Made by a program: the position numbers and the translations under genes. From the NCBI GenBank assembly GCA_007745835.1, contig CP036424.1:4575968-4639967 (forward strand): DNA of 64,000 bases, given 5' to 3'. This document shows positions 3,662 to 55,060 of this stretch, in pieces (positions within the stretch are counted from its first letter, which is position 1; every line of letters begins with the position of its first letter). Below the pieces are notes generated by a model that saw only the letters and a list, made by a program, of their open reading frames with translations, had not been told where the DNA came from and made no database searches. The DNA comes from Planctomycetes bacterium MalM25 (GTDB lineage Bacteria; Planctomycetota; Planctomycetia; Pirellulales; Lacipirellulaceae).

Positions 3662-3686
3662 AACCGCCAAGACGCCAAGAGCGCCA
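3662..3686 (-). repeat. Family A TTGGCG repeat, copy 1
   Basis: The plus strand has AACCGCCAAGACGCCAAGAG followed by CGCCA, identical over 25 bases to the copy at 6598 and to the reverse complement of the copy at 7497. On the minus strand it consists of TTGGCG hexamers at 8-9 base spacing, with a further unit at about 3692-3697. It sits in the 461-base gap 3408-3868, which otherwise holds the inverted repeat at 3555 and the family C hairpin at 3788. Confidence 0.85.
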
Positions 3687-3868: not shown

Positions 3869-4666
3869 TCATTCCTCGAGCGCCGCCAGCAAGGTCGCCA
3901 CGTAGTCGCCCACCTCTTTGAGCACCTCGGCGTGGGGGCGGCTGGCCGCTTCGGCGACGCGCTTCACGATCGCCGAGCCGACGATCAGGCCGTCCGCCAC
4001 CGGCGCCAACAGCTTCACGTGCTCCGGCTGGCTGACGCCGAAGCCGATGCAGATCGGCAGGTCGGTCTGCTCGCGGAGCCAGCCGACGTTGTCGACCAGG
4101 TCGGGCGGCAGCTGCGTCCGCTCGCCCGTGATGCCGGCGACCGACACGTAGTAGACGAATCCGGTCGACGTCTCGCAGATCCGCACCGCGCGGTCGCGCG
4201 GCGTGGTGGGCGTGACGAGCTGGATGAGCGACAGGCCACGCTCGCCGGCGACCTTCGCCAACGCGGGCGACTCCTCGACCGGCAGGTCGGGAACAATCAG
4301 CCCCGCGACGCCCCGCGAGGCGACATCGTCGCAGTAGCGCTCGACGCCGTGGCGGAAGATGATCGCGTAGCTGACCATCGTGACCGCCGGAGCGCCCAAG
4401 CCGGGGCAGGTCTCGCCGAGCATGTCGAGGATGCCGGCGAGCTTGATCTTCTTTTCCAGGGCGCGCGTGTAGCTCGCCTGGATGACGGGCCCGTCGGCGA
4501 TCGGGTCGCTGTAGGGCACGCCCACTTCGCACAGCGACGCCCCCCGGCCCACGACCTCCTTCAGGACCGCCGCGGTGAACGCGAGGTCCGGGTCGCCGGC
4601 GGTGACGAACGGCATGAGGGCCTTGCGGCCGTCGGCGCGGAGCTTGGCGAAAAGTTCGGGGATCAT
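3869..4666 (-). CDS. trpA: Tryptophan synthase alpha chain
   Basis: 265 residues, the normal length. TrpA cleaves indole-3-glycerol phosphate to indole and glyceraldehyde 3-phosphate and passes indole to TrpB through the alpha2beta2 tunnel. The active-site block LCEVGVPYSDPIADGPVIQ (about residues 45-63) holds the catalytic Glu and Asp. The phosphate-binding GFGVSQPEHV and ADGLIVGSAIVKR appear near residues 210-240. It is the last gene of the trpB-antitoxin-toxin-trpA block, starting 45 bases after the toxin stop. Separation of trpA from trpB by a toxin-antitoxin pair is unusual. Confidence 0.97.
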   Translation of the reverse strand: MIPELFAKLRADGRKALMPFVTAGDPDLAFTAAVLKEVVGRGASLCEVGVPYSDPIADGPVIQASYTRALEKKIKLAGILDMLGETCPGLGAPAVTMVSYAIIFRHGVERYCDDVASRGVAGLIVPDLPVEESPALAKVAGERGLSLIQLVTPTTPRDRAVRICETSTGFVYYVSVAGITGERTQLPPDLVDNVGWLREQTDLPICIGFGVSQPEHVKLLAPVADGLIVGSAIVKRVAEAASRPHAEVLKEVGDYVATLLAALEE

Positions 4667-4711
4667 GCGAAGGCGGAATGGGGAAGGCGGGGTGCGGGAC
4701 GCTTGGTCAAT

Positions 4712-5008
4712 CTAACCCGTAAGTGAGAGATCTTCGATCCGTCGGGCGCTGTGGTAGATCCGCAGAATATAGAGCGCCTGATCAACCACCTGATAGAAGA
4801 CAAGATACGGTTCCACCAAGAAGCGGCGGCAACCTCCGACTCTTGGATCCCGCTCGCCGCGCTCCGGGTGATGGCGTGTCAGTTCGATCTGATCATGGAT
4901 GAGCCGCACCATCCGATCCGCCAGCTCGATACGGTAGGCAGCATGGTACTCCCACACACACGCCAGATCGCTGCGAGCGGGATCGGTAATGATCACCTTG
5001 AGGCTCAA
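4712..5008 (-). CDS. ParE/RelE-superfamily toxin
   Basis: A 98-residue type II toxin. The sequence LKVIITDPARSDLACVWEY at the N-terminus, then RMVRLIHDQIELTRHHPERG, GCRRFLVEPYLVFYQV and LYILRIYHSARRIEDL, is the standard ParE/RelE fold. The YLVFYQV strand and IYHSAR end are typical of ParE-like members. The start is inferred as the TTG whose last two bases overlap the antitoxin stop (TTGA), which means tight translational coupling. ParE toxins poison gyrase and RelE toxins cleave ribosomal mRNA. The sequence does not decide between them. Confidence 0.88.
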   Translation of the reverse strand: MSLKVIITDPARSDLACVWEYHAAYRIELADRMVRLIHDQIELTRHHPERGERDPRVGGCRRFLVEPYLVFYQVVDQALYILRIYHSARRIEDLSLTG

Positions 5009-5301
5009 GACTTCTGATGCCTCCGGTGCATCTCGTCCAAGAACGCATCGGGGTCCCAATCGGAGACCTCACCACGGGTGATGGCCTCTTCCGCCTCAGC
5101 AAGACCTTTACGCATGTACTCGACATGCGCCTCGTCGGCGTCGAGCTGCTCGTTGGCGGCGGCGGGCTCGGCCGCCCCCCCCTTGAGCCGCTCGGCGATG
5201 CAGCGACGCAGGAACTCCTCCAGCGTGACGCCCTGGGCGTCCGCCATGCGGATGGCGTCGGCGCGAAGTTCTTCGGGTAAGTCGATATTGATGCTGACCA
5301 T
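5005..5301 (-). CDS. Antitoxin of ParE-type module
   Basis: 98 residues. The N-terminus, MVSINIDLPEELRADAIRMA then QGVTLEEFLRRCIAERLKGG, is a beta-strand/helix/helix DNA-binding element of the ribbon-helix-helix kind used by antitoxins. The acidic C-terminus (GLAEAEEAITRGEVSDWDPD) would wrap the toxin. It begins 17 bases after the trpB stop and overlaps the toxin gene by the TTGA junction. An antitoxin of this type normally represses its own promoter, so it could influence trpA expression. That is inference. Confidence 0.85.
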   Translation of the reverse strand: MVSINIDLPEELRADAIRMADAQGVTLEEFLRRCIAERLKGGAAEPAAANEQLDADEAHVEYMRKGLAEAEEAITRGEVSDWDPDAFLDEMHRRHQKS

Positions 5302-5318: not shown

Positions 5319-6548
5319 CTACCCGTAGTTTACTCCCTTCAGCCGCGCGATCTCCATCGCGTCCTTGTCCCCCCGCCCGCTCAGGCAGACAACGACCACC
5401 TCGTCCGGCGAGCGCTCGGCGGCGACTTCCATCGCCATCGCCACCGCGTGCGAGCTCTCCAGCGCGGGCATGATGCCCTCGTTGGCGGCGCACGCGTCGA
5501 AGGCGTCCATCGCGGTCGTGTCGCGGCAGCTCGTGTAGCGGACGCGCTGCGTGTCCTTCCAGTAGCTGTGCTCCGGGCCGACGCCCGGGTAGTCGAGACC
5601 GGCGGACATGCTGTGGACGTCGCAGGTCTGGCCGTCGTCGTCTTGCATGACGTAGCTGAACGAACCGTGCAGCACGCCGGGCTGGCCGTAGGTCAGCGGG
5701 CTCGCGTGGTCGCCCGCCTGGTCGGAGCGTCCGCCCGCCTCGACGCCGATCAGCTCGACGCCCTCGTGCTCGACGAACGGGTAGAACATGCCGGCCGCGT
5801 TCGACCCGCCGCCGACGCAGGCGACGACCGCGTCGGGCAGGCGTCCCATCCGCTCCTGGCACTGGGTGATGGTCTCCTTGCCGATGACTGATTGGTAGTC
5901 GCGCACGATCCGGGGGAAGGGGTGCGGGCCGACGACCGAGCCGAGGATGTAGTGGGTCTCCTCGACCGAAGCCATCCAGTCGCGCATCGCCTCGTTGATT
6001 GCGTCGCGGAGGGTCCGCGCGCCGCTCGTCACGGGGCGGACCTCCGCGCCCAGCAGCTTCATCGCGAAGACGTTCGGCGCCTGCCGGCGGATGTCCTCCT
6101 CGCCCATGTAGACGACGCACGGCAATCCGAAGTGCGCGCAAGCGGTCGCCGTCGCCACGCCGTGCTGGCCGGCGCCCGTCTCGGCGATGACGCGTTTCTT
6201 GCCCATCCGCTGGGTCAGCAGGCACTGGCCGAGCGTGTTGTTGATCTTGTGGGCGCCCGTGTGGTTCGTGTCCTCGCGCTTGAACCAGATCTGGGCGCCG
6301 CCGCACTTCTGGCTCAGCCGCTTCGCGTGGTAGAGCGGAGAGGGCCGGCCGACAAAGTCCCGCCACAGCTCGTCCAGCTCCGCCTGGAAAGCGGCGTCGG
6401 ACCGCGATTTCTCGTACTCGACCGCCAGCTCGTCGAGCGCTCGGACCAGGGTCTCGGGGACGTAGCGCCCGCCGAAATCGCCGAAACGCCCGGCGGCGTC
6501 GGGCACGTTGGGGCTGGCGGCTTCACGGGGGGGGGCGGTGGTGCTCAT
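5319..6548 (-). CDS. trpB: Tryptophan synthase beta chain
   Basis: 409 residues. It condenses indole with serine to give tryptophan. The PLP lysine lies in [15 protein letters not shown] (about residue 100), and the phosphate-binding loop GGGSNAAG is near 245. The protein ends with the conserved [17 protein letters not shown]. The ATG at 6548 is used because upstream in-frame sequence is repeat-derived. A run of nine C (minus strand) lies about five codons into the gene, within two prolines. A family A repeat lies 49 bases upstream in the leader. Downstream, the toxin-antitoxin pair and trpA follow on the same strand. Confidence 0.97.
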
Positions 6549-6597: not shown

Positions 6598-6622
6598 AAC
6601 CGCCAAGACGCCAAGAGCGCCA
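6598..6622 (-). repeat. Family A TTGGCG repeat, copy 2
   Basis: 25 bases identical to copies 1 and 3. On the minus strand it reads TGGCGCTCTTGGCGTCTTGG and then CGGTT, ending 49 bases before the trpB ATG. It also forms the left member of an inverted pair with 7497-7521, enclosing the membrane-protein gene. Confidence 0.9.
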
Positions 6623-7496: not shown

Positions 7497-7521
7497 TGGC
7501 GCTCTTGGCGTCTTGGCGGTT
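7497..7521 (+). repeat. Family A TTGGCG repeat, copy 3
   Basis: TGGCGCTCTTGGCGTCTTGG then CGGTT, ending 10 bases before the mutM ATG. An extra TTGGCG at 7485-7490 gives four hexamer units in all. Same orientation relative to its downstream gene as the copies before trpB and proA. Confidence 0.9.
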
Positions 7522-55033: not shown

Positions 55034-55060
55034 ACCGCCAAGACGCCAAGAGCGCCAAGG
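55034..55060 (-). repeat. Family A TTGGCG repeat, copy 4
   Basis: Plus strand ACCGCCAAGACGCCAAGAGC then GCCAAGG. On the minus strand three TTGGCG units end 11 bases before the proA ATG. A purine-rich stretch (CCACAAAGAAACAAAGAAAC) follows at about 55070, echoing the flank of copy 1. The rest of the 55061-55289 gap has no gene. Confidence 0.9.

What the first reader, a model, noticed from the sequence alone, without database searches (positions are those of the whole stretch)
4712..5301. Toxin-antitoxin pair embedded between trpB and trpA
A coupled antitoxin/ParE-type toxin lies on the same strand as trpB and trpA with gaps of only 17 and 45 bases. All four may share one transcript. This would tie tryptophan synthase alpha synthesis to antitoxin autoregulation, or give an addiction-type safeguard for the operon. 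The antitoxin and toxin appear intact.
Basis: partly seen in the sequence, partly recalled or inferred. Interest (0 to 1): 0.6.

Follow-up and report, generated by a model that had tools for sequence, protein, structure and literature searches.

The report
Swappable toxin-antitoxin pair inside trpB–trpA
A small poison-and-antidote gene pair sits between the two genes for the enzyme that makes tryptophan in a planctomycete bacterium; relatives carry different, broken or no pairs at the same spot, so it looks like a tolerated, exchangeable passenger rather than a part of tryptophan control.

Summary
Confirmed. trpB, antitoxin, ParE-type toxin and trpA are intact on the minus strand, with spacers of 17 and 45 nt and a TTGA overlap between antitoxin and toxin. 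Not an artefact: the genome is one contig, and a congener (G009) has an antitoxin–ParE pair at the same junction. Of 39 family genomes with measurable trpB→trpA spacing, 8 hold a pair or relic there: 2 ParE, 4 VapC, 2 decayed. A named MAG has an orphan antitoxin there, and 1 of 58 other Pirellulales measured has a third kind of pair. In close genome pairs, synonymous sites of the toxin genes are saturated while those of trpB and trpA are not, and the VapC tree contradicts the TrpBA tree, so alleles were replaced in situ. The window's antitoxin is a chimera: a ribbon-helix-helix head on a tail that elsewhere carries another head. Co-transcription is likely but unproven. Absence or decay in close relatives argues against addiction or TrpA control. 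TA pairs inside operons are a known kind (relA-mazEF-mazG), and by eye 7 of 18 ParE genes in five of these genomes sit that way. New here: the trp site and the head-swapped antitoxin.

The parts
5319..6548 (-). trpB, tryptophan synthase beta
   Evidence: TIGR00263 596 bits
5302..5318 (-). 17-nt spacer with CCGGAG upstream of the antitoxin ATG
   Evidence: sequence; G009 has the same 17-nt length and also CCGGAGCA
5005..5301 (-). antitoxin, 98 aa, chimeric
5179..5301 (-). antitoxin head, residues 1-41: ribbon-helix-helix (VapB/CopG-like)
   Evidence: profile of five trp-junction VapBs without the window finds only this place in the own genome at E<=1, E 9.8e-8; model helices 10-22 and 27-41
5008..5142 (-). 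antitoxin tail, residues 54-98: ParE-antitoxin neutralising part
   Evidence: local score 151 against the G009 tail, best of 2000 shuffles 51; same tail at E<=0.01 in 18 further antitoxins of ParE loci, G009 (in the profile) included
4712..5008 (-). ParE/RelE-superfamily toxin, 98 aa, TTG start overlapping the antitoxin stop (TTGA)
   Evidence: PF05016; pLDDT 91; nearest PDB ParE2 5cw7
4667..4711 (-). 45-nt spacer before trpA, no terminator-like stem
3869..4666 (-). trpA, tryptophan synthase alpha
   Evidence: TIGR00262 240 bits

Best explanation
A complete type II toxin-antitoxin passenger lives in the trpB-trpA intercistronic gap and is read on the trpB transcript (inferred). The antitoxin has its own Shine-Dalgarno-like site in the 17 nt after trpB; toxin translation is coupled to it through a TTGA overlap (sequence shown, coupling inferred). 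The antitoxin tail should wrap the ParE-fold toxin, and its RHH head should dimerise and may bind DNA (inferred from families and model). The gap is a standing exchange site in this family: over time the resident pair has been replaced, decayed or lost while trpB and trpA stayed (shown by synonymous divergence, tree conflict and relics), probably by recombination in the conserved flanks (inferred). In this lineage an exchange joined an RHH head, best matched by VapB-type antitoxins at the same site, to the tail and toxin of a ParE module whose antitoxins otherwise carry another head (chimera shown, donor of the head inferred). It is selfish or neutral, not a regulator of tryptophan synthase (inferred).
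For: Same-site pairs or relics in 8 of 39 family genomes: G000, G009, G034, G036, G037, G038 with open frames; G025, G033 decayed, plus an orphan RHH antitoxin in L100. Flanks against cassette, pS: G034-G036 trpB 0.37, trpA 0.42, antitoxin 0.94, toxin 0.76; G033-G036 0.26, 0.25, antitoxin 0.73; G033-G034 0.38, 0.43, antitoxin 0.84; G000-G009 0.43, 0.38, toxin 0.78. VapC tree puts G034 outside its trp sisters (98/92) while TrpBA groups G034, G033, G036 (100/100). Head swap: window and G009 tails homologous (151, 0 of 2000 shuffles), heads not (19, 964 of 2000); of 18 other antitoxins with this tail at E<=0.01 in 80 ParE loci (G009 included, which is in the profile), 17 have the LTPEQ-type head by eye, 1 is unclear, none is RHH. 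Window antitoxin against 43 family genomes: of 4 head-covering hits besides itself at E<=0.01, 3 are at trpB-trpA. No promoter or terminator found inside. TA in operon gaps is usual here: 7 of 18 ParE genes in five genomes by eye.
Against: The 46-column RHH tree is unresolved; one clade of the 8 trp-site heads is neither shown nor rejected (AU p 0.196). Some non-trp RHH heads score almost as high against the window head (79, 79, 79, 78) as the second trp one (81); only G025 stands out (105), and two trp heads score 56-59. VapC of three non-trp loci (G017, G157, G115) fall inside the trp VapC clade, though monophyly of the trp ones is not rejected (p 0.202). Synonymous estimates at 31-50% protein identity lean on uncertain alignments; the G000-G009 antitoxin, whose heads are non-homologous, gives only 0.53, and in wider pairs the flanks themselves reach 0.47-0.66, so the contrast rests on the close pairs. 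ParD-like RHH antitoxins also stand beside some ParE genes of the order (by eye: L186, L191, L203), so RHH plus ParE is not unique in itself; RHH with this tail is. No expression data; the promoter scan covers sigma-70 only.
Confidence: 0.72

Rival explanations
1. One reading: the pair regulates or protects the operon. RHH autoregulation or antitoxin addiction ties trpA expression and operon retention to the pair.
For: Tight same-strand packing and no internal promoter or terminator found; a pair or relic is present at the same junction in two clades.
Against: Absent or decayed in close relatives with intact trpB and trpA (G008, G007, G035, G025, G033); toxin and antitoxin types exchanged; a 99-nt clean junction exists in a congener. 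No inverted repeat of 8 nt or more near the antitoxin start except one 10-nt palindrome inside trpB (5405-5422).
Confidence: 0.12
2. Repeated independent insertion of unrelated TA modules at a permissive gap, with no ancestral resident and no local head transfer. It shares the passenger part of the best explanation and differs on where the head came from.
For: Different toxins (ParE, VapC and the G133 pair in another family); other genes also land here (DUF1963, esterase-like); RHH tree unresolved.
Against: Trp-site VapBs of G025 and of four Lacipirellula-genus genomes are 41-59% identical, and G025's half VapC, not in the profile, falls in the trp VapC clade (8 rows with 3 non-trp, 100/99); the window head's nearest family hits are at this site.
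Confidence: 0.4
3. Same resident module all along; the cassette simply evolves very fast.
For: Toxin and antitoxin genes can diverge quickly (recalled).
Against: In close pairs synonymous sites are saturated in toxin or VapB (0.73-0.94) but not in flanks (0.25-0.43); ParE and VapC are different families; G009 and window heads are non-homologous.
Confidence: 0.05
4. Assembly artefact or chance ORFs.
For: None found.
Against: Single-contig genome, same arrangement in G009, also a single contig, curated family score, confident toxin fold.
Confidence: 0.01

Closest known systems
mazEF inside relA-mazEF-mazG and yafNO inside dinB-yafNO-yafP of E. coli; parDE at relA-mazG in Salmonella (PMC7167474, passages read)
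   Same: TA pair in an intercistronic gap of an operon; strains without it keep an undisturbed operon; different TA modules at one site
   Different: Here the host genes are the two subunits of tryptophan synthase, and the antitoxin itself is a head-swapped chimera
ParDE / PaaA2-ParE2
   Same: Toxin family PF05016 and fold
   Different: Antitoxin misses the ParD cut-off; its head is VapB/CopG-like and its tail is of a type usually joined to an LTPEQ head in Pirellulales
VapBC
   Same: RHH head like trp-site VapB antitoxins of relatives
   Different: No PIN toxin in the window's pair
Antitoxin modularity and partner swapping (NetFlax/Panacea, PMC10440598; Makarova 2009, PMC2701414; passages read)
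   Same: DNA-binding and neutralising parts recombine; RHH and PIN/RelE are network hubs
   Different: Here the swap is seen at one fixed chromosomal site with the parts present in relatives

Membership tests
Type II toxin-antitoxin module | two small overlapping co-directional genes, antitoxin first, toxin of a known family | tested here: met
   TTGA overlap, PF05016 51.6 bits
Type II toxin-antitoxin module | toxin inhibits growth and antitoxin neutralises it | not testable with these tools
   needs expression in a laboratory strain
ParE/RelE toxin superfamily | curated family cut-off and fold | tested here: met
   51.6 against 23 bits; TM 0.84 to ParE2
ParE proper (gyrase poison) versus RelE (mRNA cleavage) | molecular target | not testable with these tools
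   fold nearer ParE chains, but RelE_StbE also scores 24.7, just under its cut-off 27.9
ParD antitoxin | PF03693 over cut-off | tested here: not met
   16.4 against 21 bits, tail only
VapBC | PIN-domain toxin next to the antitoxin | tested here: not met
   toxin is PF05016 with ParE fold. At the same site PIN passes Pfam's cut-off in G034 and G038; G036 and G037 were not scanned but align with them
TA embedded in an operon | short co-directional gaps on both sides, no terminator between | tested here: met
   17 and 45 nt, no terminator-like site between
TA embedded in an operon | shared transcript | not testable with these tools
   no RNA data
TA embedded in an operon | relatives with undisturbed operon | tested here: met
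   G008 99 nt, G035 137 nt, G039 144 nt junctions

The most novel reading that the evidence does not exclude
The trpB-trpA junction of this family (Lacipirellulaceae) is an old toxin-antitoxin exchange locus at which chimeric antitoxins are built in place: the resident DNA-binding head stays next to trpB while incoming modules supply new neutralising tails and toxins, so that an unrelated toxin comes under the old head's control.
Probability: 0.4. Interest if true: 0.6.

Novelty: new variant of a known kind. Interest (0 to 1): 0.42.

Why it matters
How chromosomal TA modules move into genomes and operons is unresolved (PMC7167474, passage, says the mechanisms remain unelucidated). This locus gives related genomes in which head, tail and toxin can be followed against well-conserved flanks, and a natural head-swapped antitoxin whose DNA-binding and neutralising halves can be tested apart. 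For the trp operon itself it is probably an ordinary passenger.

Tried and rejected
Chance or artefact: rejected. Fast evolution of one resident allele: rejected on synonymous sites in close pairs. Terminator or promoter isolating the pair: none found; folds of the three junctions are no better than shuffles. Operator palindrome at the antitoxin start: none found. PADLOC defence families: no match.

Matches by construction, not counted as evidence: trp-site VapBs, VapCs, window and G009 toxins and tails are members of the query profiles.

Trees: read one strand only and lost rows (G034 among them in both; G000 and G033 in 53); one search's AU p of 0.043 against one RHH clade comes from that flawed set with junk rows. 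One search replaced both. In one search the VapC set dropped L168 and L175 of the 30 loci, and the RHH set left out L143 of the 30 loci and added L100.

Dropped before counts: G026, G027, G031 (trpA or trpB missing) and G042 (opposite strands) of 43 family genomes. Outside the family: 38 genomes measured by script (the 30 best trpA loci, plus 8 more fetched mostly because printed distances were large, so not a random sample) and 20 by hand subtraction of printed coordinates (47-166 nt between profile matches). Printed lists were capped, and genomes with the genes on different contigs or far apart were left out. Only gaps of 220 nt or more were read for ORFs there. Gap lengths run to the codon aligned with the window's TrpA start; in most relatives the likely ATG lies 6 nt earlier.

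Literature: no paper on TA modules in trpBA seen in full-text searches (open-licence PMC; listings only, except passages of PMC7167474 and PMC13315336; the 10 papers were not opened).

Full report
On the minus strand lie trpB (6548..5319), a 98-residue antitoxin (5301..5005), a 98-residue ParE-fold toxin (5008..4712) and trpA (4666..3869), with spacers of 17 and 45 nt and a TTGA overlap between antitoxin and toxin. trpB, trpA and the toxin pass curated cut-offs. The toxin model is confident (pLDDT 91) and nearest to ParE2. The antitoxin passes no cut-off, but its model shows two helices in residues 10-41, a low-confidence stretch at 42-52 and two C-terminal helices, and its head matches Arc, CopG and VapB chains (E-values above 0.1, so supportive only).

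The genome is a single 4.72 Mb contig.

Survey of the junction. Of 43 family genomes searched, 41 have trpA and 41 trpB. In 40 with both genes located, 39 are co-directional and measurable, with gaps of 2 to 4054 nt. Eleven gaps are 500 nt or more. Eight hold a TA pair or relic: RHH antitoxin plus ParE in the window; antitoxin with another head plus ParE in G009; RHH antitoxin plus VapC in G034, G036, G037, G038 (PIN over Pfam's cut-off in the two scanned, G034 and G038; four acidic positions D5, E46, D102, D121 invariant in all four; that these are the PIN active site is recalled); RHH antitoxin plus the C-terminal half of a VapC, and a large enzyme-like ORF, in G025; RHH antitoxin with an internal stop in G033. 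The other three hold a DUF1963 gene in G007, a gene that looks the same in G006, and esterase-like and carrier-protein-like genes in G003 and G006 (by eye). A named Pirellulales MAG (L100) has an orphan RHH antitoxin in a 311-nt gap. Outside the family 58 genomes were measured (38, 20 from printed coordinates); one, G133, has a TA pair there, a 76-residue antitoxin overlapping by 4 nt a PF05016 toxin (46.4 bits). That sample was not random: several were fetched because their gap was large. Seven named Pirellulales loci outside the family with both genes have gaps of 51-111 nt; some may be the same genomes.

The cassette does not travel with its flanks. G034 and G036 have TrpB 93% and TrpA 97% identical with pS 0.37 and 0.42, but antitoxins 47% and toxins 48% identical with pS 0.94 and 0.76. 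G033 and G036: pS 0.26 and 0.25 in flanks, 0.73 in the antitoxin. G033 and G034: 0.38 and 0.43 against 0.84. Window and G009: 0.43 and 0.38 against 0.78 in the toxin, but only 0.53 in the antitoxin, whose heads are not homologous. In wider pairs the flanks reach 0.47-0.66 and the contrast shrinks. Alignments at this identity are uncertain, so the numbers are rough. In the TrpBA tree G034, G033 and G036 group at 100/100, while in the unrooted VapC tree a 98/92 branch sets G036, G037, G038 and G025, with three non-trp VapCs, apart from G034. Replacement by diverged alleles explains this; fast evolution does not. The window and G009 are not sisters in the TrpBA tree (G009 groups with G007 at 99/96), so the ParE pair was either lost in G007 and others or gained more than once.

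The antitoxin is a chimera. The tails of the window and G009 antitoxins are homologous (score 151; best of 2000 shuffles 51) and their heads are not (19; 964 of 2000 shuffles as good) (DNA alignment). Searching 80 ParE-bearing loci with the tail gave, besides the window, 18 antitoxins at E<=0.01, G009 (a member of the profile) among them; 17 have by eye the same head as G009, a domain of the form LTPEQ..AL..G..V.D..T..VY.L, 1 is unclear and none is RHH. Two antitoxins with that head have no Pfam match at E<=0.1. Other ParE loci of the order carry other antitoxins, some ParD-like by eye (L186, L191, L203), so RHH beside ParE is not unique; RHH on this tail is, in this sample. A profile of five trp-site VapBs without the window finds just this place in the whole own genome at E<=1 (E 9.8e-8, 41 candidates scored). 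The window antitoxin searched against 43 genomes gave 4 head-covering hits at E<=0.01 besides itself, 3 of them at trpB-trpA (G025, G033, G034) and one inside a 974-residue frame. Against this, the RHH tree is unresolved (AU p 0.196 for one clade) and some heads from other families score 78-79 where the second trp-site head scores 81; only G025 (105) is clearly apart. So the chimera is well supported, and the origin of its head from a resident VapB is probable but not shown.

How it works. A consensus scan found no promoter and no terminator-like site between trpB and trpA, so read-through from the trpB promoter is the simplest expression route (inferred). Antitoxin-first is the canonical order, with lower toxin translation giving antitoxin excess (review PMC7167474, passages). 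The module can be absent: G008 has a 99-nt junction, G035 137 nt, G039 144 nt, and decay is visible in G025 and G033. That argues against a necessary role in tryptophan synthesis and against strong addiction.

How special it is. Among 18 ParE-family genes of five genomes (4, 6, 0, 2 and 6 in G000, G007, G008, G009, G034), 7 including the two trp ones lie between co-directional genes with short gaps on both sides, by eye on ORF tables. TA pairs in operon gaps, and different pairs at one gap, are described for E. coli and Salmonella. The finding is thus a new variant of a known kind: a new and well-bounded site, between two subunits of one enzyme, with a head-swapped antitoxin. Six full-text searches, seen mostly as listings, showed no report of TA modules in trpBA.

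Noticed in passing
window 3664-3685 (-), 6600-6621 (-), 7498-7519 (+), 55035-55056 (-): Identical 22-nt element GGCGCTCTTGGCGTCTTGGCGG, 4 exact copies, chance expectation 0.01; three lie within 4 kb around the trp genes, one about 50 nt upstream of the trpB start.
   Followed up: partly
L033:7371-7625, L055 and 15 other ParE loci: Antitoxin head domain of the form LTPEQ..AL..G..V.D..T..VY.L, common beside ParE toxins in Pirellulales (by eye); the two examples scanned have no Pfam match at E<=0.1.
   Followed up: partly
L238 (G133), trpB-trpA gap: A third TA pair (antitoxin without a clear family plus PF05016 toxin) at the trpB-trpA junction in another family of the order.
   Followed up: partly
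L262, L246, L253 (G007): Other ParE pairs packed among housekeeping genes: directly before a folP-like gene (overlap), between a guanido-kinase-like and a DUF488-like gene, and upstream of a purA-like gene (names recalled, by eye).
   Followed up: no
L035 (G007) and L083 (G006), trpB-trpA gap: DUF1963 gene between trpB and trpA in B. colliarenosi; a similar-looking one in Aeoliella straminimaris with further genes in a 4-kb gap.
   Followed up: partly
window 5319-5380 and relatives: The last 60 nt of trpB are very alike between cassette-bearing relatives (0.93-0.95 identity in four pairs; 0.85 in two pairs with a cassette-less partner; other 60-nt blocks of trpB 0.72-0.97). Protein constraint or recombination are both possible.
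   Followed up: no
L095 (G042): trpB and trpA about 10 kb apart on opposite strands in a close relative.
   Followed up: no
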